Part shown: in pieces, positions 12,362 to 29,268 of the stretch | Layout: every line of letters begins with the position of its first letter | Numbering within the stretch: position 1 is the stretch's first letter | From: Vulcanimicrobiota bacterium | GTDB lineage: Bacteria > Vulcanimicrobiota > JAJTBE01 | Assembly: GCA_021107945.1 (NCBI GenBank) | Contig: JAIORV010000159.1 | Span: forward strand, 1 to 32,625 | Direction of reading: 5' to 3' | DNA length: 32,625 nt | The notes under the pieces: model-generated | Told to the model about the DNA's origin: nothing | Seen by the model: only the letters and a program-made list of their open reading frames with translations | Database searches by the model: none | Program-made: the position numbers and the translations under genes

Positions 12362-15300
12362 TTGGCGTTTATGTTCCGCAAATCAACTCTTGTATTACCA
12401 AAGTTTGTCTATCTGATTCTGGGTATTGTTATACTTGGAAATATAGCACTGACCATCCCAAAAATTCGCAAAATGCTGACGCCAAATCTCTTCCTCGGAA
12501 TGATTGTGGTATATGCGGTTGCGATAGTAGTCCTGCTTGCCTATAGTGAAGATGCCAGCATGGGGCAGTCTTCAGGAAATTCGTTTTCAGAAAGTCCATA
12601 TTTTCTCATCTTCCTCTTTCCCATAATCCTTGCAAGTTTATATTATGGCATGCGTGGAGCTGCATTTATTGCAACTTTGATAGGTGTTATTGATATTGCT
12701 GCAAATCTTATAATGGTCAGCATATTAAAAGATTATAACATTGAAGATGTTTTCAATTTCTCCACACTTGTAAGATTGGCTCTATACTATTTAATTGCAC
12801 TTTTCATTAGTAATATTCAGGAAGAGAAGATGAAGATAGTAAAAGTCAAGGATGAGAAATCCGAGGAGTATAAAAAACTCGTCAAGAAGCTAAGCCTTGT
12901 TAATGAAAAACTCGAAAAAGATGTTGCAAAAATTGAGGAAGAAAGAAACAAGGCGGCAACAACGGCAAAGAAAACCAAGCTGCTCCTTAATATTTCGCAA
13001 AATTTGTCCCAGAATCTTGACCTGCGAATGATCCTCTCGGCTACCCTTACCAAAATTCGCGAACTTGTACTTTATCATTCAGGAGCTATTTTCTTTTATG
13101 ACTCGGATAAGAGCGAGCTATATATGGCCGCCCATGAGGGACTCTATGAAGATGAGATGCAAATAAACCTGCGGTCTGACATTGGCATTCCATATATGGT
13201 GGCACAAACAAGAAGATCTCTTGTAATTAACGATACGGCAAATGACCCGAGATTCAATACCATATTATCCAACGAGCAAAGCGTCAAGGTAAACTCGGCT
13301 ATCTATCTTCCAATAACACATGAAAAAGAAGTTTTTGGCGTTATTTGCCTTTGGAGTATGGAGAAGAATAGCTATGGTGAAGAAGATATCCGACTTCTCA
13401 CAACGGTTACAAGAGAAGCCGCGAGGTCTATTAACAACGCCGAGCTATACAAAAAACTTGATACAAGGTTCAACTTTGTAATCACTCTCTGGCAGATTTC
13501 AAAAAGTCTGACTTCCTCGTTAGACCTTTCAGCTTCATGGGAAAAAGTTCTCGAAGAAGTATTAAGAACAACCGGTTATCTTTTTAACTCGGATAAATTA
13601 ATATTTTTCCAGTATAAAAAAGAATTAAGAGAATTGTCTCCTTACATTGCAATAAATGTAAGTAATGCTACAAAGAAAAACTTTGTTATTAAATTGAAAC
13701 AGGAAGAGGGAAGTTTGCCGGAATTCATGGTTTCGAATTTTCAGGTTCACAATGTTAGAGCGGAAGCACGCTTCTCTATGATTGCTCCCTTCGCTGTGAA
13801 AGAAGGATTTACTTCAATGCTATGGTCTCCTCTGCGGGGGAGAAACAGACTTATTGGGTCGCTTGCTCTTTTTTCTACGGAACAAAGAAAATGGACTTCA
13901 GAAGATATACAGTGGCTTGACATTTTTACAAATATGCTCTCCATGACATTAGAAAACGTTCAGCTACTCGTTGACCTTGTCTCGGAGAAAACTCAGCTTC
14001 AGGCACTTATTGATAATGTACCGGAGGGAGTTTATACAACCGACGCAAACCGCAGAATTTTGACCTGGAACCGTGCAGCCGAGAAAATAACCGGCTTCAA
14101 GATGTCAGATGTTACGGGGAATGATTGTTGCAATACCATTCAATGCCAGAATGTTGAAAATACATTTTGCAAAGATAATTGCCCCATAAATTTAGCCATT
14201 GAAAAACAGGAAAAAGTTGATTCAGGACTTGAAAACGTTTTCATCATAAACTCACAAAAAGAACTTATTCCTGCATTTATAACAGCCGCTCCCATTTTTG
14301 ACGAAGCAGGACAGGTGAACGGTGCTATTATGGTCTTCAGAGACATCACCAAAGAAAAGGAAATCGAGCGGATGAAAGAGGAGTTTCTCGCAACAATTAC
14401 ACATGACCTCAAGAGTCCGTTGGCATCAATAATGGGATATACGGAGCTTATATTAAACCCGAAACTTGGGACCGTTACTCAGAATCAAAAAGAATTCCTG
14501 AACGCTATACTCAGGGCTTCAAATACGCTACAAATTTTGATAAATAATATCCTTGAAAGTACAAGAATGGAAGCAGGCAAGATGACATTCAACCCGGTTC
14601 TTTTCAAACTCTCGGATCTCGTTACAGAAATAGCAGAAATGTTCAGACCTCTGCTTGCACATAAATCCCTCAATTTTGAAGCCCCGGTAGATACTTCTAT
14701 TGTTGTCTATGGCGACAGAGAAAAACTTAGGGAAGTATTCATTAACCTCATTAGTAATGCGCTCAAATTCACACCGGAAGGAGGACTTATAAGCATTGGC
14801 GGCGTGAAACTAAATGGGCAGGCGGAAGTCAGAGTGTCGGACACAGGAAAAGGAATACCTAACTCGGAAATACCAAAACTTTTCCAGAAATTCTCCCAGG
14901 TAAAGGGAGAAAAAAGAGGAACCGGACTGGGGTTATATATTTGCAAAAGAATTGTGGAAGCCCATGAACAGAAGATATGGGTTGAAAGTGTAGTAGGGGA
15001 GGGAACTAGCTTTATTTTCACTCTCCCCACATATAAGAATGTTGTTGATAAGAGTGCCCAAAAAACTATCCTGATTGTTGAGAATGATGAGCCTCTTGCA
15101 GGAAAAATGAAAAAATCTTTAATTGAGCATGAATATCATGTGAATGTTGCTCCGGGTTTCGAAGAAGCTTTGAAGCTGTTGAATGATGATGATGAGCAAT
15201 TGCCGCAAGTCGCTGTGATCGATTGGCATCTTCCTGACGGAGAGGCACTCAAGTTAATGGAATATATAAGAGAAAATGAGAAGCTGGATGATATGGCTTT

Positions 15301-15415
15301 GTTACTCCTTTGTGATTACCGGGAAGAAATCAGCGGCGATTTTGACGCTGTGGTGAATAAGCCTATCAATTTCAGGGATTTATTAATGAAAGCCAATGCG
15401 TTTGCTCAACCATAG
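12362..15415 (+). CDS. Membrane hybrid histidine kinase with two GAF, a Cys-rich PAS and a receiver domain
   Basis: 1017 aa from TTG 12362. Order: several membrane helices (to about 150), coiled coil (155-205), GAF (215-365), second GAF (375-545), PAS (550-668), HisKA with H681 in THDLKSP, HATPase (NLISNALKF, DTGKGI, GTGLGL), and a receiver at about 899-1017 with D954 and a late Lys-Pro. It should autophosphorylate H681 and pass phosphate to D954. The PAS carries five cysteines at 589, 590, 595, 603 and 607, which suggests redox or metal sensing. No separate output regulator lies beside it. The frame continues upstream, so the real start may be near 12293. It sits between the radical SAM gene and rng with short gaps, probably cotranscribed with at least the former. 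Confidence 0.93.
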   Translation: MAFMFRKSTLVLPKFVYLILGIVILGNIALTIPKIRKMLTPNLFLGMIVVYAVAIVVLLAYSEDASMGQSSGNSFSESPYFLIFLFPIILASLYYGMRGAAFIATLIGVIDIAANLIMVSILKDYNIEDVFNFSTLVRLALYYLIALFISNIQEEKMKIVKVKDEKSEEYKKLVKKLSLVNEKLEKDVAKIEEERNKAATTAKKTKLLLNISQNLSQNLDLRMILSATLTKIRELVLYHSGAIFFYDSDKSELYMAAHEGLYEDEMQINLRSDIGIPYMVAQTRRSLVINDTANDPRFNTILSNEQSVKVNSAIYLPITHEKEVFGVICLWSMEKNSYGEEDIRLLTTVTREAARSINNAELYKKLDTRFNFVITLWQISKSLTSSLDLSASWEKVLEEVLRTTGYLFNSDKLIFFQYKKELRELSPYIAINVSNATKKNFVIKLKQEEGSLPEFMVSNFQVHNVRAEARFSMIAPFAVKEGFTSMLWSPLRGRNRLIGSLALFSTEQRKWTSEDIQWLDIFTNMLSMTLENVQLLVDLVSEKTQLQALIDNVPEGVYTTDANRRILTWNRAAEKITGFKMSDVTGNDCCNTIQCQNVENTFCKDNCPINLAIEKQEKVDSGLENVFIINSQKELIPAFITAAPIFDEAGQVNGAIMVFRDITKEKEIERMKEEFLATITHDLKSPLASIMGYTELILNPKLGTVTQNQKEFLNAILRASNTLQILINNILESTRMEAGKMTFNPVLFKLSDLVTEIAEMFRPLLAHKSLNFEAPVDTSIVVYGDREKLREVFINLISNALKFTPEGGLISIGGVKLNGQAEVRVSDTGKGIPNSEIPKLFQKFSQVKGEKRGTGLGLYICKRIVEAHEQKIWVESVVGEGTSFIFTLPTYKNVVDKSAQKTILIVENDEPLAGKMKKSLIEHEYHVNVAPGFEEALKLLNDDDEQLPQVAVIDWHLPDGEALKLMEYIRENEKLDDMALLLLCDYREEISGDFDAVVNKPINFRDLLMKANAFAQP

Positions 15416-21214: not shown

Positions 21215-23194
21215 CTACCTCGTGAAAATATTAAACGGAGGCGGCGTATAATCTTTCGGCCTTTTGTCTTCAGGTATCGTAATCTCGTTTCCGTCCCTCA
21301 ATGAGGAATAGTGAGACGACATAATCTCCACTCCGGCCTCGTTGAATTTGTCCTGGATATTTTCGTGAAGCTCGGAGTATATCTCGTCCATTAATTCCGG
21401 ATGATTTGTATAAGCATTGATTTCATACGACACATAGAAATCATCAAGGCTTTTCTGCAATACAAAAGGCTTCGGATCATCCAGTACATATTTTATTTCA
21501 GTCGCCGCGTTTATCAGAAGCTCATGCACCTGTCTCCACGGAGCATCATATCCTATTGTAATATTCTTATGCAAAATGAGTCCATAATCTTCTGCAAGGC
21601 TGGAATAATTGGTTATGGGTCCCGATAGAACCTGTGAATTGGGAATTGAGATATCCACATTTTTTATTGTCCTTAAACGGGTTGCAAGAAGTGATTTTTC
21701 AATCACATCTCCAGTTACATTCGCTATTTTAACCCTGTCGCCGACCTTGAACGCCCGGGTGTATGTCAGAACGACTCCGGCAACAATATGAGAGATAAGG
21801 GATGTTGATCCAAGCGAGAATATCACGCCGATAAATATCGATATTGCTCGAAAGGCGGGGGAGCTGTAACCGGGAAGATATGGAAGAATAATTACAATTG
21901 CAATGACAATTATAAATCCCCTGATGATTTTCTGGGTTGGATCAAGCCATTCCTCGTAAAATCCTGGAATGGTTATAGTGCCTTTTTTTACTTCATCGAA
22001 TATAAACCTGACAAAACGGAGTATATATCGGGTGGCAATCAACATCAGCAAGACAAACAGGAAACTCGGCAGATATGAAGATATTGAAGTCCAGAGTTTG
22101 AAAAGCAGTTTTGAAACAGAACTTGAAAAGCTTTCGGATATCCCCTCGGTTTCCGGGAAAAAGTCCGAAACATAATCAAACAGTATGTATATCAGGGTAA
22201 GGATAACAACCCACCTGAGAAACTTGAATATGAAAAACATCAGGTCTGCTAATCTCTTGTCGGATATTATATCCAGGTTCTGAATTTTTATGGATCGTAT
22301 CCACTTACCGCGCCATGAATGTAGTTTCTTGTGAATCGCCGGACTTAATTTACTGCTTATAAATATAAGAATGATGAGCAGGATGCACCCAACAATCCCC
22401 ACCACGGTTCCCTTTACCATTCTTTGTTTCCTGAGTTTATTGCGTGCCTCTTCCAGCGTTATTTGAATGATCAGCTTGTATTCATTTGCCAACTCAAGCC
22501 TTGTGCGCTTTTCGGGCTTTGCGTCCTTATCACTCAGAGTTACCAGTATTCGTTTACCCGCCATTATATTTGTAGTCCATTTTTCCTCAACTACATTTAT
22601 ATCGTCAGGATGAATTTTTGTATCTTTAATAATTGAGTTTAATCTGTGGGAGATAGCTTCCGCTCTCTTGGGGGGCGAATATGGCCCCAATTTTGCATAT
22701 AACGCAAACATAGGCTTTCCCGCCATTGTCACAACCGCACCCTGTGGCTTTTCCTCTGCGATAGCTTTATCGGGGGAAGATGTAGGTGACGGCAACGGCT
22801 TCGGAGATATAAATGAAGACGGTGAAGCTTCCGGAGATGGCGAAAGTTTCTTTGAAGATTGATCCGATGGTGTATGGGATGGCTTGATTGACTCTGGTTT
22901 CGGAGCCGAAGAATCTCCGGGAGATTTGTGGAGTGACGGTGATGTTTTTATATCGGGAGAGGATTGAACCAAATCTGTTACCGCCGGTGTCGGGACAATC
23001 ACGGGCTTGACTGAAGACGACGGCGTGGGTGTTAAGCCTGTAATCTGTGCGATTAATATATTATCACAATGCTCTGTCCGGCCGTGTACTGGAGTGCCTG
23101 CAATAAAAAAGAAAAAAAGTATAATTGCCGCCAGGAAAAATATGGCGGATTTTTTTAAAATCGATTTTCTTTCCAATTTTCTTTCCTTAATCAT
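21215..23194 (-). CDS. MscS-family mechanosensitive channel with Pro/Ser/Thr-rich periplasmic linker
   Basis: 659 aa. A signal peptide or anchor (16-34) is followed by a Ser/Pro/Thr-rich linker (about 52-145) full of SPSP and PTP units, a soluble domain (155-255), and membrane helices at about 261-281, 318-342, 372-392, 422-440 and 446-478. The MscS pore and beta domain then follow: IGVIFSLGSTSLISHIVAGVV near 455-475, RAFKVGDRVKI at 480-490, and DISIPNSQVLSGPITNYS at 514-531. The family opens under membrane tension to release solutes. Its ATG overlaps the stop region of the upstream MscS gene by 8 bp, so translation is coupled. Confidence 0.9.
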   Translation of the reverse strand: MIKERKLERKSILKKSAIFFLAAIILFFFFIAGTPVHGRTEHCDNILIAQITGLTPTPSSSVKPVIVPTPAVTDLVQSSPDIKTSPSLHKSPGDSSAPKPESIKPSHTPSDQSSKKLSPSPEASPSSFISPKPLPSPTSSPDKAIAEEKPQGAVVTMAGKPMFALYAKLGPYSPPKRAEAISHRLNSIIKDTKIHPDDINVVEEKWTTNIMAGKRILVTLSDKDAKPEKRTRLELANEYKLIIQITLEEARNKLRKQRMVKGTVVGIVGCILLIILIFISSKLSPAIHKKLHSWRGKWIRSIKIQNLDIISDKRLADLMFFIFKFLRWVVILTLIYILFDYVSDFFPETEGISESFSSSVSKLLFKLWTSISSYLPSFLFVLLMLIATRYILRFVRFIFDEVKKGTITIPGFYEEWLDPTQKIIRGFIIVIAIVIILPYLPGYSSPAFRAISIFIGVIFSLGSTSLISHIVAGVVLTYTRAFKVGDRVKIANVTGDVIEKSLLATRLRTIKNVDISIPNSQVLSGPITNYSSLAEDYGLILHKNITIGYDAPWRQVHELLINAATEIKYVLDDPKPFVLQKSLDDFYVSYEINAYTNHPELMDEIYSELHENIQDKFNEAGVEIMSSHYSSLRDGNEITIPEDKRPKDYTPPPFNIFTR

Positions 23195-24497
23195 TTGTAA
23201 TCATTTTTTTTGAATCCCCATTTAATTCCACTTTTAAATCCCCTTTTGAATCCCCTTTCATTTCTACTGTTCTTATGGGGAATGGAAGATTTATTCCTTC
23301 TTTATTATACCTTGCATGCAATCGCTTTACAAATTCATTCCTGATGGAATAATGATCTGCATATTCCTTTATACGCAGAACCACAGTCATATTAATGCTT
23401 GAATCGGCAAATGTATGAAATCTAATCTCTGGGATAAAGTCCTTTACTCCTCCGTCCACCTCATTCATTAACTTTCTGACCACTTCTTTCGTTACCTTTT
23501 CCACATATGTAAGATTACTCTCATAACCGACTCCCACCGGGACAAGAATGGACATCTCTTTTTCAGGCCGACTATAATTTGATATTATTGTTTCAGCGAG
23601 TTTAGAATTGGGAATAATTATCATATAATCGGTCAGATCTTTAATCATGGTACTTCGCCATGTTATGTCCATAACATATCCTTCCTCGCCCGAGCTGAGC
23701 TTCACATACTGCCCCGGTTCCACCTCCTTGGATGCAATAATATAAAGCCCGGAGAAAAGATTCGAAAGGGTTTTTTGAAGTGCAAGTGCGACAGCAAGAC
23801 CGCCCACACCCATTGCAGTAAGTATTGGCGTTATGGATACACCCAAAGTATCCATCAGAACAAGGAAGCCCATTAAGTATATAAAGAGCCTGGTTATATT
23901 TCCAATAAGCGTGGTATGGGGAAGGACTTTAGCTACCTTTTCCAAATATTGTTTTTCCAGTGCAACGACAACCCTTGAGAAGATAATAGTCATGAAGATA
24001 ATCACAACTATAACAATCACCTTATGGATTATTTTAAGCTCACTTTCTCCGATATTTACATATAAGATTGACATGTAAAAGCCTGCCATTGTAAACACAA
24101 ATGTTATTAGACCCTTGAACGGAGTGGTGATTATTCTGAAACCTTCCCATTTGGCATTTTTGAACGATCTATTCAGTTCAGATCTTAAAACTATCTCAAG
24201 TATTAATCCCAGAATGAAGCCTCCAAATATAAGCGAAGCTATAATGAGATTTTTCTTTATCTGGCTTTTGTTCTGGAAAAATATATGAATGTCGAAGTCT
24301 ATCTTTTTTTCTGTTAAGTTAGGTGTTGATGTTGGAGTCGGCGTGAGTGTCGGTGTTGATGCCTGTAAGAATAAAGCTGACCCCGATATACCTGTGCCGA
24401 AATCGCAAAGAGAAGCTGACATGGCAAACCCTGTCAACAGTATGAAGAGTGCCAGCGTGAAGTGTGATATGTTTTTTAGTATATTATTGTTTTTCAT
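23187..24497 (-). CDS. MscS-family mechanosensitive channel
   Basis: 436 aa. A signal peptide (to about 28) and a TPTLTPTPTSTPN linker (48-60) lead to membrane helices at about 83-105, 125-147, 156-178 and 200-226. The pore helix and beta domain are clear: GVGGLAVALALQKTLSNLFSG near 230-250, EVEPGQYVKL at 258-267, GYVMDITWRST at 273-283, and IIIPNSKLAETIISNYSR at 293-310. The C-terminal domain ends with a charged tail with repeated GDS-K units. No strong ribosome site precedes ATG 24497. It shares low complexity linker and fold with the next gene, suggesting an old duplication, though the two are very different in length. Confidence 0.92.
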   Translation of the reverse strand: MKNNNILKNISHFTLALFILLTGFAMSASLCDFGTGISGSALFLQASTPTLTPTPTSTPNLTEKKIDFDIHIFFQNKSQIKKNLIIASLIFGGFILGLILEIVLRSELNRSFKNAKWEGFRIITTPFKGLITFVFTMAGFYMSILYVNIGESELKIIHKVIVIVVIIFMTIIFSRVVVALEKQYLEKVAKVLPHTTLIGNITRLFIYLMGFLVLMDTLGVSITPILTAMGVGGLAVALALQKTLSNLFSGLYIIASKEVEPGQYVKLSSGEEGYVMDITWRSTMIKDLTDYMIIIPNSKLAETIISNYSRPEKEMSILVPVGVGYESNLTYVEKVTKEVVRKLMNEVDGGVKDFIPEIRFHTFADSSINMTVVLRIKEYADHYSIRNEFVKRLHARYNKEGINLPFPIRTVEMKGDSKGDLKVELNGDSKKMITND

Positions 24498-26584: not shown

Positions 26585-26944
26585 ATTCGTACACAGCCTT
26601 TCGTTGGGTGTTTTGGAATTGTATCTTTTTCCCTGAATGCATACAAAATCCTTTTCCCATGCATATGGTATGCCCTCGAACCTGACGGGAAAACTGCCGG
26701 GGAAGTGAATAAATGAATGCCGATATAGTCCGAATTGGGTAGCGAAAAGTAACCGCCCCTGTTGGTCTCAGGGATTATTGGTGATTCAAAATATCTTTAC
26801 CGGTGTGTAATAAACCCTGATATAATTTAACATTTTATTAATAAAGAATTGATTGTTAATTCAAGAGTCTTATGATATAATACTTTACTAATAGAAGAAA
26901 CTTATTTTTTTAGTCCTATTGTATTAACATAGGAGATGATTAAC
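26585..26944 (+). other. 360-bp divergent intergenic region
   Basis: It separates the exported toroid gene (leftward) from the first small paralog (rightward). The right end holds a good sigma-70 promoter (26853-26881) and AGGAG at 26931-26935. The middle contains a CCCTG/CAGGG hairpin with a 7-nt loop near 26757-26773 and the phrase GGTAGCGAAAAGTAACC, for which no riboswitch class could be matched. No reading frame with coding features was seen. Confidence 0.6.
26853..26881 (+). promoter_or_regulatory. Sigma-70 promoter of paralog 1
   Basis: TTGTTA (26853-26858), 17-bp spacer, TATAAT (26876-26881). The same region is duplicated upstream of paralog 2 with TAAAAT as -10. Confidence 0.7.
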
Positions 26945-27535
26945 ATGAAGCTCAGATCAAATACACAGTCTGCTATACCCGCTCCGAAAAGTGACCTTTC
27001 AAAGACCGGGAAAAAGGAACCGGTTTACGCAATCAAGGATAAGGTTGACGATCTTCGTAAGAAAGAAAAGGATCTTGGCGAGGATATTAATAAACTCAAA
27101 GAAATGGGTGTAAAGAAGTGGTGGAAAGGTAAGCAAGCCAAGCCTAGAAAATTGCTTGCAGGAATAATTGGTTCCGTAGGGATTCTTGGAATGTCGGCTC
27201 TTATATTTGCGTCGGGAGGCTCCGCAGCAGGTTTCTTGCTTTCGATGGCTGTGGTGGTAGGTATTCCAATGACATGCCTGATGCTCAATAGCCAATCAAG
27301 CGATAAACATCTGGAATCGGCCAGACAGGACGCATATGATACCGAGGTGGAAAAAGCTGAACAAGAACTGCGGAAAGACCATGAGTACCTGGAGCGGTGG
27401 GAAGAGAATAAAGATGCTGCCGATAAGATCGTGGAGGCTTCAATAACAATCAAAGAGGGCTCAAGTGTCTCCGAGATTATCAACGAAGAGAAAAGCGTAA
27501 CCATCGGGGGGATAAAGTTGAAGAAAAGGAGATAA
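26945..27535 (+). CDS. Small two-helix membrane protein, paralog 1, unknown family
   Basis: 196 aa from ATG 26945. ATG 26936 touches the AGGAG site and is rejected. N-terminal 58 residues are polar and Lys-rich with a coiled-coil part (KDKVDDLRKKEKDLGEDINKLKEM). Two membrane helices follow (about 70-89 and 95-114) with a Gly-rich turn, then a charged coiled coil (117-165) and a conserved tail with EIINEEKSVTIGGIKLKKRR. No signal peptide, so both ends probably face the cytoplasm. A 191-aa paralog follows. Ends are nearly identical between the two, even in DNA, while the centre is strongly diverged. No known family was recognised. A hairpin membrane anchor for a complex is a guess. Confidence 0.72.
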   Translation: MKLRSNTQSAIPAPKSDLSKTGKKEPVYAIKDKVDDLRKKEKDLGEDINKLKEMGVKKWWKGKQAKPRKLLAGIIGSVGILGMSALIFASGGSAAGFLLSMAVVVGIPMTCLMLNSQSSDKHLESARQDAYDTEVEKAEQELRKDHEYLERWEENKDAADKIVEASITIKEGSSVSEIINEEKSVTIGGIKLKKRR

Positions 27536-27542
27536 TCAATAG

Positions 27543-27655
27543 AAAAACGGAGCCGGCAAGTGCCAGGAACGGTATCCCATAGGATCAGGAAAGAATCTCC
27601 AGGATTCCCCCTGCCCCATATGCGGCGGAACGGGAAAGACATTAACTTGTAGTAT
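27543..27655 (+). other. Spacer present only after paralog 1
   Basis: Both paralogs end in TAATCAAT and then reach CCTGCCG, but paralog 1 has about 113 extra bases between. One plus frame within it reads SPCPICGGTGKTLTC, a zinc-ribbon-like phrase, but without a start codon. It may be a gene scrap lost from the second copy by deletion. Confidence 0.4.
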
Positions 27656-27676
27656 CATCCTGCCGCCCTGTCTGAT

Positions 27677-27738
27677 CTATTTCTTCAAAATTCTACCCAC
27701 AGGTCCTTTAAGATCCAACATTTCATTTAGTTTCTTAT
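27677..27738 (-). pseudogene. 3'-end fragment of the DUF3298 gene
   Basis: The 65 bp at 27674-27738 match 28419-28483 except at two positions. On the minus strand it encodes KKLNEMLDLKGPVGRILKK and a stop, the last 19 codons of the intact gene at 28422-29165 with two changes. It was copied along with the paralog by a tandem duplication. It is not expressed as protein. Confidence 0.9.
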
Positions 27739-27760
27739 TTCAAGAGCTTTATGATAAAAT
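27732..27760 (+). promoter_or_regulatory. Duplicated promoter of paralog 2
   Basis: TTCTTA (27732-27737), 17-bp spacer and TAAAAT (27755-27760) align with the paralog 1 promoter. The -35 lies inside the duplicated gene fragment, so it was built at the duplication joint. Both boxes are weaker than those of paralog 1. Confidence 0.5.
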
Positions 27761-27830
27761 ATTTTATCAACAGAAGAAACTTATTTTTTAGATCTAATTT
27801 ATTAACATATTATCCTGGGAGATGATTGAC

Positions 27831-28406
27831 ATGAAGCTCAGATCAAATACACAGTCTGCTATACCCGCTCCGAAAAATGACCTTTCAAAAACCGGGAAAA
27901 AGGAGCCGGGCTACACAATCAAGGATAAGGTTGATGATCTTCATAAAGAAGAAGATAATCTTGGCGAGGATATAAACAAGCTCAAAGAAATGGGTGTAAA
28001 GAAGCGGGAGAAAAGCAAGAAGAACAATAAGGTAGGCATGCTTGCGGGCATACTCGGAACCGTAGGGTGTTTCACCTTAGCGGCGGTTGCCCACGCGGCA
28101 GGAGGTTCCATAGGGGGAGTCCTTCCTCTTATTGCAATGATCGGTCTTCCATGGACATTCCTGATACTCACGAGTCGTTCAAACCAGCAAAATCGGGAAG
28201 CGGTCAAACATGACTCAGAGGCAGAAAACGTTAAACAACAACAGCAGGAAGTCCATAAAAGCCGGGAGTGGTGGGAAGAGAAGAAAGTGACTGCCGATAA
28301 AATTGTGGAGGCTTCAAAAAACAGAGATGACTCAAGTGTCCCCGAGATTATCAACGAAGAGAAAAGCGTAACCATCGGTGGGATAAAGTTGAAGAAAAGG
28401 AGATAA
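27831..28406 (+). CDS. Small two-helix membrane protein, paralog 2
   Basis: 191 aa from ATG 27831, with GGGAG at 27817-27821. ATG 27822 touches that site. Layout equals paralog 1: Lys-rich N-terminus with coiled coil, two membrane helices (about 68-90 and 93-111), a Gln-rich charged helix (QQQQEVHKSREWWEEKK), and the constant tail. The first 50 and last 25 residues are almost unchanged, but the membrane and following coil are replaced at more than half of positions. The single cysteine lies in the first helix rather than the second. It converges on the DUF3298 gene with 15 bp between stops. No terminator hairpin was seen. Confidence 0.72.
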   Translation: MKLRSNTQSAIPAPKNDLSKTGKKEPGYTIKDKVDDLHKEEDNLGEDINKLKEMGVKKREKSKKNNKVGMLAGILGTVGCFTLAAVAHAAGGSIGGVLPLIAMIGLPWTFLILTSRSNQQNREAVKHDSEAENVKQQQQEVHKSREWWEEKKVTADKIVEASKNRDDSSVPEIINEEKSVTIGGIKLKKRR

Positions 28407-28421
28407 TCAATCCTGCCGGAT

Positions 28422-29165
28422 CTATTTCTTCAAAATTCTACCCACAGGTCCTTTAGGATCCAATATTTCATTTAGTTTCTTATATGGGACCAGGACTTTT
28501 CGCACACCAGCCGCATAGCAATCAACCTGGTACGGTGGGAACAGAATGAGAATTCCCTTGTCGGTGAGAATAAAACATTTATAGTTTTTCGCTTCCGCCT
28601 TCGCTCCATCTCTGATCCACTTTTCATCTGTATGCTTTGTTTTTATGAGCTGAGCAATACAGTATTTTGAGATCCGAGCCAGGTATTTTGATTTAGGCTT
28701 GAAAAGGTCTTTCAACTCCACCTTTTCCCCGCTTTTCAGATCAAAGGTCAGCGTATAAAACAACGGGTTCGGATGCGCACCCCCGGTAAATTCTCCGCCT
28801 CTCATAATAACACATATGATGTCATTCTTCTGATATTTGATTTCATACGCTATATCAAGATTCCAGGGAAGTCTTAATTTCGGAGTTGATGCCTTCGCCT
28901 TCTTATAATCCTCTTTAAATCCCTTCGCCTGGTTGTCGATATATTTCTTGATCCCGGCGTTGAATTTCTCCTGAGATTTCTTATTTTTATAATTTACAAG
29001 TCGGGGGTATTCGGCCTTGATGGAATATTGATCGCCCTTTTCCTTGAATACTTTCTTCTCGGTCTTGATTGATGCGGCATTGACCGGGCAAGATTGGGCG
29101 AATATGATGAATAACATTGCCAGTACCACCGTAATTATGGGGAGATATTTCCATGTTTTATTCAT
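28422..29165 (-). CDS. Exported DUF4163/DUF3298 (RsiV/PdaC-like) protein
   Basis: 247 aa, ATG at 29165 with GGAGG 8 nt upstream. A signal peptide ends near PVNAAS (residue 31). Residues 35-120 are like DUF4163, and residues about 120-240 are DUF3298: GGEFTGGAHPNPLFYTLTFDLKSGEKVELKDLFK, then a C-terminal part with FILTDKGILILFPPYQVDCYAAGVRKVLVPYKKL. Similar domains occur in the anti-sigma factor RsiV, which binds lysozyme, and in the deacetylase PdaC. No deacetylase or anti-sigma helix is fused here, so it is probably an envelope or lysozyme-binding protein. Its 3' end was copied between the two paralogs. Confidence 0.85.
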   Translation of the reverse strand: MNKTWKYLPIITVVLAMLFIIFAQSCPVNAASIKTEKKVFKEKGDQYSIKAEYPRLVNYKNKKSQEKFNAGIKKYIDNQAKGFKEDYKKAKASTPKLRLPWNLDIAYEIKYQKNDIICVIMRGGEFTGGAHPNPLFYTLTFDLKSGEKVELKDLFKPKSKYLARISKYCIAQLIKTKHTDEKWIRDGAKAEAKNYKCFILTDKGILILFPPYQVDCYAAGVRKVLVPYKKLNEILDPKGPVGRILKK

Positions 29166-29234: not shown

Positions 29235-29268
29235 TGTGGAGAAAATACCTCTGTGGAGAAAATACCTC
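29235..29268. repeat. 17-bp perfect tandem duplication
   Basis: TGTGGAGAAAATACCTC occurs twice without gap at 29235-29251 and 29252-29268. Confidence 0.9.

What the first reader, a model, noticed from the sequence alone, without database searches (positions are those of the whole stretch)
26853..28483. Tandem small membrane proteins with constant ends and variable centre
The two proteins share almost identical first 50 and last 25 residues (one base difference in the last 65 bp), yet the membrane hairpin and following coil differ at more than half of positions. Uniform drift after duplication cannot give this. Either the ends are kept alike by gene conversion or strong constraint, or the centre diversifies. 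This constant-variable-constant plan, with coiled coils flanking a membrane hairpin, could mark a family of partner-specific membrane anchors or effectors.
Basis: partly seen in the sequence, partly recalled or inferred. Interest (0 to 1): 0.62.

Follow-up and report, generated by a model that had tools for sequence, protein, structure and literature searches.

The report
Genome-wide end-tagged modular proteins
Two neighbouring small membrane proteins turn out to belong to a set of more than thirty otherwise unrelated proteins in one uncultured bacterium that share a leader-like start and a short "IGGVKL" tail, which looks like an undescribed address label for docking or secretion.

Summary
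Two tandem genes (26945-27535, 27831-28406) have near-constant ends and a divergent coil, membrane hairpin and coil. Neutral-proxy divergence is 16% at the 5' side, 47% in the centre and 5% at the 3' side. The low 3' divergence continues past the stop codon into a 72-nt duplicated fragment that includes the 3' end of the convergent DUF3298 gene. Constraint alone cannot explain that, so the ends were homogenised by recombination over an older, fast-changing centre.

The larger result lies outside the window. The C-terminal 20 residues (V-x-I-G-G-[IV]-K-L-x-x-K) recur at the ends of about 34 ORFs in this genome and 26 in a relative from another family. Weaker variants occur in about six more genomes of the phylum. 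Carriers belong to about ten unrelated families: PQQ propellers, alpha-solenoids and coil-hairpin-coil proteins. They lack Sec-like N-termini and share a second, independently enriched N-terminal motif (D-x-[FVYW]-x-x-[SGT]; p = 2e-16). No Pfam or NCBIfam model scanned here describes the tag, and a full-text paper search found none.

Best reading: a bipartite address label (leader plus beta-hairpin tag) on variable cargo. Type-III-like export is plausible but unproven.

The parts
26853..26881 (+). promoter-like site of copy 1 (TTGTTA-17-TATAAT, TG before the -10)
   Evidence: consensus scan; such sites are not above chance in the region
26945..27535 (+). copy 1, 196 aa: leader, coil, membrane hairpin, coil, tag (alternative start 26936)
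   Evidence: AGGAG about 9 nt before the ATG at 26945
26945..27028 (+). copy 1 disordered, basic, non-hydrophobic N-terminal leader (aa 1-28)
27149..27292 (+). copy 1 hydrophobic hairpin (aa 69-116), the most divergent part together with the following coil
   Evidence: hydropathy, dS/dN
27473..27532 (+). copy 1 C-terminal tag EIINEEKSVTIGGIKLKKRR
   Evidence: tag profile A3, 32.3 bits, E 8.6e-7; this sequence is one of the 25 rows of A3
27542..27666 (+). 125-nt segment present only after copy 1; one frame reads SPCPICGGTGKTLTC (zinc-knuckle-like)
   Evidence: no other match in the genome
27667..27738 (+). 72-nt duplicated fragment including the 3' end of the DUF3298 gene, 94% identical to 28412-28483
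   Evidence: repeat D4; no notable RNA fold
27732..27789 (+). upstream region of copy 2, 84% identical to 26853-26910
   Evidence: repeat D5
27831..28406 (+). copy 2, 191 aa, same plan; hairpin closer to the relative in G017 than to copy 1 (alternative start 27822)
28344..28403 (+). copy 2 C-terminal tag EIINEEKSVTIGGIKLKKRR
   Evidence: tag profile A3, 32.3 bits; AF2 beta hairpin at residues 180-187, low confidence
28422..29165 (-). convergent gene, PdaC domain plus DUF3298; its 3' end is part of the duplicated unit
   Evidence: Pfam PF11738 3.7e-17, PF13739 9.9e-16

Best explanation
The two proteins are tandem members of a lineage-specific class of proteins with a bipartite address. The first part is a disordered N-terminal leader without a Sec signal. 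The second is a C-terminal beta-hairpin-like tag (V-x-I-G-G-[IV]-K-L-x-x-[KR]) on a flexible linker. The middle is exchangeable cargo: PQQ propellers, alpha-solenoids, and in this window a coil, membrane hairpin and coil. A common partner is inferred to read the ends and bring the cargo to one place. A type-III (flagellar-type) export machine is the most likely reader and docking inside the cell the main alternative. The pair arose by tandem duplication of promoter, gene and the 3' end of the neighbour. Recombination between the copies later re-homogenised the ends, chiefly the tag and 3' flank, while the centres kept an older and relaxed or diversified divergence. Shown: the class, the tag, the leader motif, and the mosaic divergence of the pair. 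Inferred: address function, export, gene conversion as the recombination route.
For: Tag pattern: 21 hits in G000 against 1 for the reversed pattern, 12 against 0 in G017, at most 3 in the other 145 genomes. 18 of the 21 G000 hits end within about 25 residues of a stop. The tag profile finds 34 places in G000 and 26 in G017 at E<=1, usually 0 or 1 elsewhere. Carriers fall into about ten families with no detectable similarity. The leader motif, not used in the selection, is in 28/44 carriers against 12/200 neighbouring ORFs, p=2e-16. None of 44 has a hydrophobic N-terminus against 35% of controls. Leaders are rich in S, P, Q, T, I and poor in L, V, Y, E. Solenoid homologues whose match reaches the end of the model align over the tag. 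Pair: neutral proxies 18/114, 31/66, 5/93, p=1e-5 and 7e-10; non-coding fragment 94% identical; hairpin identity copy 2 to G017 52%, copy 1 to copy 2 44%.
Against: No partner of the tag was found. Neighbours of tagged genes are unrelated. The one striking neighbour, a FlhB_C-FlhA_C fusion beside two tagged genes, is about what chance allows (roughly 0.2 expected). Both full-length FlhA proteins in G000 are flagellar; no injectisome gate reaches its cut-off. FlhA-family proteins are near-universal in the phylum while the tag is not. The window pair lack the full leader motif (KDKVDDL). The tag profile was built from G000 and G017 sequences, so their high scores are partly circular.
Confidence: 0.6

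Rival explanations
1. The tag and leader are a type-III (flagellar-type) export address: carriers leave the cell through one of the two flagellar-type export gates, and hairpin carriers such as the window pair insert into a target membrane, working like translocators or Inc-type membrane effectors.
For: No Sec signals on PQQ propellers, which are usually exported; leaders disordered, rich in S/T/P/Q/I and poor in L. Leaders such as DSVQIS recall FlgM-type leaders (from memory). Two flagellar-type FlhA gates and several FlhA-C-domain-only proteins in G000, one fused to FlhB_C next to two tagged genes. FlgM leaders can carry foreign cargo through the flagellar machine (PMC7911332).
Against: No SctV above cut-off; genomes with many FlhA paralogues (G016, 17 matches) have no tag matches; the one gene-neighbour link is within chance; G000's own FlgM has only a partly similar leader; no type-III signal known to me has a conserved C-terminal tag.
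Confidence: 0.35
2. The tag is a docking peptide that recruits carriers to an intracellular scaffold or membrane complex, as cargo-loading peptides do; nothing is secreted.
For: Short C-terminal hairpin on a flexible linker, shared by unrelated cargo.
Against: Encapsulin, the best-known reader of such tails, is absent from G000 and G017, the two tag-richest genomes. Docking alone does not predict the shared leader without Sec signals.
Confidence: 0.3
3. The pair alone: a recent duplication whose centre diversified under positive selection while the ends stayed as they were.
For: High dN in the centre (0.52), dN/dS about 0.7; copy 1 hairpin far from both relatives.
Against: Synonymous change is also several-fold higher in the centre (0.74 against 0.08-0.26), which selection on protein sequence alone does not give.
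Confidence: 0.12
4. Constraint alone: old duplicates whose ends are conserved because the leader and tag are needed.
For: The tag is conserved in G017 and on many proteins; codons 31-58 have nearly the same synonymous change as the centre (5/23 against 11/37), so that part of the N-terminal similarity may be constraint.
Against: Low divergence continues into a non-coding gene fragment (4/72) with no RNA structure above shuffles and into synonymous sites of the tag (1/27).
Confidence: 0.1

Closest known systems
Flagellar type-III export substrates with N-terminal leaders (FlgM type)
   Same: Short N-terminal leader, disordered, no hydrophobic stretch, sometimes ending in D-x-[VF]-x-x-[SG]
   Different: FlgM has no C-terminal tag; carriers here are large unrelated proteins; export not shown
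Encapsulin cargo-loading peptides (from memory: C-terminal GSL-type tails)
   Same: Short hydrophobic-glycine C-terminal tail on a linker, shared by unrelated cargo
   Different: No encapsulin in G000 or G017; motif is IGG[IV]KL; carriers include membrane proteins and share an N-terminal leader
C-terminal sorting tags (PEP-CTERM and similar, type IX CTD)
   Same: One conserved C-terminal signature on dozens of otherwise unrelated proteins of one genome
   Different: No membrane helix or Arg cluster as in CTERM tags, no about 80-aa Ig-like domain as in type IX; carriers lack Sec signals; no NCBIfam or Pfam model matched the tail
Type-III translocators / chlamydial Inc proteins (from memory)
   Same: Coil, hydrophobic hairpin, coil behind a Sec-free N-terminus in the window pair
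   Different: No sequence relation detected; no injectisome identified in G000
Concerted evolution of paralogues in prokaryotes (PMC6053082)
   Same: Paralogues in one genome more alike than orthologues, here in the ends only
   Different: Only the ends of this pair are homogenised; the centre escapes

Membership tests
IGGVKL-tagged class (defined here) | V-x-I-G-G-[IV]-K-L within about 30 residues of the stop | tested here: met
   both copies, 32.3 bits, E 8.6e-7
IGGVKL-tagged class (defined here) | N-terminal leader without hydrophobic stretch | tested here: met
IGGVKL-tagged class (defined here) | leader motif D-x-[FVYW]-x-x-[SGT] (common, not universal, so not required) | tested here: not met
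   window pair have KDKVDDL, which lacks the final S/G/T; 28 of 44 carriers have the motif
Type-III secretion substrate | secreted in an FlhA/SctV-dependent way | not testable with these tools
   needs secretion assay
Type-III secretion substrate | injectisome export gate in the genome | tested here: not met
   both full FlhA proteins score above the FlhA cut-off and below the SctV cut-off; flagellar-type gates are present
Encapsulin cargo | encapsulin shell protein in the genome | tested here: not met
   PF04454 absent in G000 and G017
CTERM sorting tags | match to a curated CTERM model, membrane helix plus basic cluster | tested here: not met
   no such match in NCBIfam or Pfam scans of carriers; tail is not hydrophobic enough for a helix
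Any curated family for the whole window proteins | match above a curated cut-off | tested here: not met
   Pfam, NCBIfam, PHROGs below cut-off or insignificant; no PDB fold match, model of low confidence

The most novel reading that the evidence does not exclude
An undescribed bipartite secretion or sorting signal (N-terminal leader plus C-terminal IGGVKL beta-hairpin) that routes 30 or more unrelated proteins per genome, membrane-inserting hairpin proteins among them, through a flagellar-type export gate or gate-derived adaptors (soluble FlhB_C-FlhA_C fusions) in an uncultured bacterial phylum.
Probability: 0.25. Interest if true: 0.85.

Novelty: new variant of a known kind. Interest (0 to 1): 0.6.

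Why it matters
A tail shared by more than thirty unrelated proteins of one genome marks a common partner or destination. It turns many uncharacterised genes of an uncultured lineage into one testable question: what reads the tag? If it is an export signal, it defines a large secretome that signal-peptide predictors miss entirely. The window pair also gives a clear small example of recombination homogenising gene ends while the centre diverges, datable because the copied unit carries a fragment of a neighbouring gene.

Tried and rejected
Homologues of the window protein: none in two genome-contig scans or one viral-contig scan; the single clear relative is in G017. Weak hits L005, L006, L007 and L009 were not taken as relatives. 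Encapsulin docking: rejected for G000 and G017. Operon context as a clue: rejected, neighbours are a D-Ala-D-Ala carboxypeptidase, a PilB-type ATPase, a sodium symporter, a peptidase M16, DsbD and YebC. A terminator or RNA element keeping the 72-nt fragment alike: no fold above shuffles. A genome source for the 125-nt segment: none. Structure: AF2 on two sequences gave pLDDT 56 and no PDB match, so only the secondary-structure plan is used. Literature on the tag: no paper in the library holds both IGGVKL and C-terminal.

Full report
1. What is there. Two tandem genes lie at 26945-27535 and 27831-28406 on the + strand. The likely starts are the second ATGs, because AGGAG lies about 9 nt upstream of them and the first ATG overlaps that site. 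The products are 196 and 191 residues long. Each has a disordered basic leader (1-28), a helix, a hydrophobic hairpin (about 69-116), a second helix, a linker and a C-terminal SVTIGGIKLKKRR. The AF2 model is of low confidence (mean pLDDT 56) and only its secondary-structure plan is used. In that model the tail is a tiny beta-hairpin with a GG turn.

2. Is the pattern real? Yes. From the likely starts, the copies match at 26/28 in the leader, 25/31 in the first coil, 20/45 in the hairpin, 17/44 in the second coil and 20/20 in the last twenty residues. The last 65 bp differ by one base. The best high-divergence segment differs at 38% of sites against 12% outside it, and none of 300 permutations reached that.

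3. Constraint or recombination? dS is about 0.17 in the first 30 codons, about 0.75 in codons 63-165 and about 0.08 in the last 33. The duplication carried a fragment of the convergent DUF3298 gene with it. The 72 nt at 27667-27738 are 94% identical to 28412-28483, of which 28422-28483 is the coding 3' end of that gene. The fragment in the first unit has no apparent function and no RNA fold better than shuffles. Counting synonymous and non-coding sites together, the 5' side has 18/114 changes, the centre 31/66 and the 3' side 5/93 (centre against 5' p=1e-5, against 3' p=7e-10). The 3' end was therefore homogenised, or copied, recently, while the centres are older. The 5' side is less clear: with identical residues only, codons 31-58 (5/23) are close to the centre (11/37), so part of the N-terminal similarity may be constraint. 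In the hairpin, copy 2 is closer to the relative in G017 (52%) than to copy 1 (44%), and copy 1 to that relative is 31%; copy 1's centre has evolved fast. Two other paralogue pairs of the same class diverge roughly evenly along their length, so homogenised ends are a feature of this pair. No close strain is held, so gene conversion, import from another strain and unequal exchange cannot be told apart.

4. Relatives. One clear relative exists in 149 genomes of the phylum (G017, another family, 38% identity). It keeps IGGIKLKK at its C-terminus although its leader is different. That led to the search for the tail by itself.

5. The tail is a genome-wide tag. The pattern for I-G-G-[IV/M]-K-L hits 21 times in G000 (1 for the reversed control), 12 times in G017 (0), and at most 3 times in each of the other 145 genomes. 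Of the 21, 18 end within about 25 residues of a stop codon. The three exceptions include an internal hit in the histidine kinase of this window (14795). A 20-position profile finds 34 places in G000, 26 in G017 and 4-10 in G048, G012, G028, G030, G034 and G036, with variants such as IGGVRLP and IGGIKV; most other genomes have 0 or 1 at E<=1. The profile was made from G000 and G017 rows, so their top scores are partly by construction. The reversed-pattern control, the position at the stop and the leader test below do not depend on it.

6. The carriers. Most are PQQ/BamB-type propellers (PF13360). Others are alpha-solenoids of about 870 residues, found in five or six genomes; where the match reaches the end of the model it covers the tag. 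Others again are coil-hairpin-coil proteins: the window pair, G017 C40, and by hydropathy G017 C12, G017 C64 and G028 C396. Several families have no Pfam match. In all there are about ten clusters with no detectable mutual similarity.

7. The leader. Carriers were chosen by their tails only. In residues 10-60 the motif D-[STRKNQ]-[FVYW]-x-x-[SGT] occurs in 28 of 44 carriers and 12 of 200 other ORFs of the same loci (p=2e-16). None of the 44 has a signal-peptide-like stretch, against 35% of controls. Leaders are enriched in S, P, Q, T and I and depleted in L, V, Y and E. The window pair have a leader of this style but not the full motif (KDKVDDL).

8. How it may work. Shown: one tail and one style of leader on many unrelated middles. 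Inferred: the ends are an address and the middle is cargo. Export by a flagellar-type type-III gate would fit the leaders, the missing Sec signals and the extra FlhA-type genes. G000 has two full flagellar FlhA proteins plus several with the C-terminal domain only, one of them fused to a FlhB C-terminal domain and lying directly after two tagged genes. I do not count that neighbourhood as evidence: with 34 tags and 8 such genes about 0.2 adjacent cases are expected by chance. FlhA paralogues are common in the phylum also where the tag is absent. Docking inside the cell is the main alternative; encapsulin, its best-known form, is excluded for the two tag-richest genomes.

9. Known or new. No Pfam, NCBIfam or PHROGs model describes the window proteins, no Pfam or NCBIfam model matched the tail of the carriers scanned, and no paper in the library holds the string together with the word C-terminal. 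C-terminal sorting tags are a known kind of thing; this tag, joined to a leader and found on Sec-free proteins, is a new variant.

Noticed in passing
G000 contig C44, locus L057:4833-6611 (+): A soluble protein made of a FlhB C-terminal domain (residues 165-267) fused to a FlhA C-terminal domain (385-590), without membrane part; the FlhB NPTH cleavage motif appears replaced (KGPNYA). It follows two tandem tagged PQQ genes.
   Followed up: partly
phylum of G000: Many genomes hold several FlhA-family ORFs that match only the C-terminal cytoplasmic domain (about 320-656 of PF00771), up to 17 FlhA-family matches per genome. An expansion of export-gate cytoplasmic domains.
   Followed up: no
window 27542-27666: 125-nt segment after copy 1 only; one frame reads SPCPICGGTGKTLTCSIILPP, like the end of a zinc-knuckle protein. 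No other match in the genome.
   Followed up: partly
L064 (G000 C90) 606-2301; L063 (G000 C86) 1318-1482: Tags that lie in a different frame from, or detached from, the preceding ORF: possible frameshifted or decayed tagged genes, or assembly errors.
   Followed up: no
window 21215-24497: Two adjacent MscS-type mechanosensitive channel genes, both with long unusual N-terminal parts.
   Followed up: no
window 14795-14811: Internal IGGVKL in the histidine kinase ORF (12362-15415), far from its stop; taken as chance.
   Followed up: yes
window 29235-29268: A 17-bp perfect direct repeat (TGTGGAGAAAATACCTC) back to back, upstream of the DUF3298 gene.
   Followed up: no
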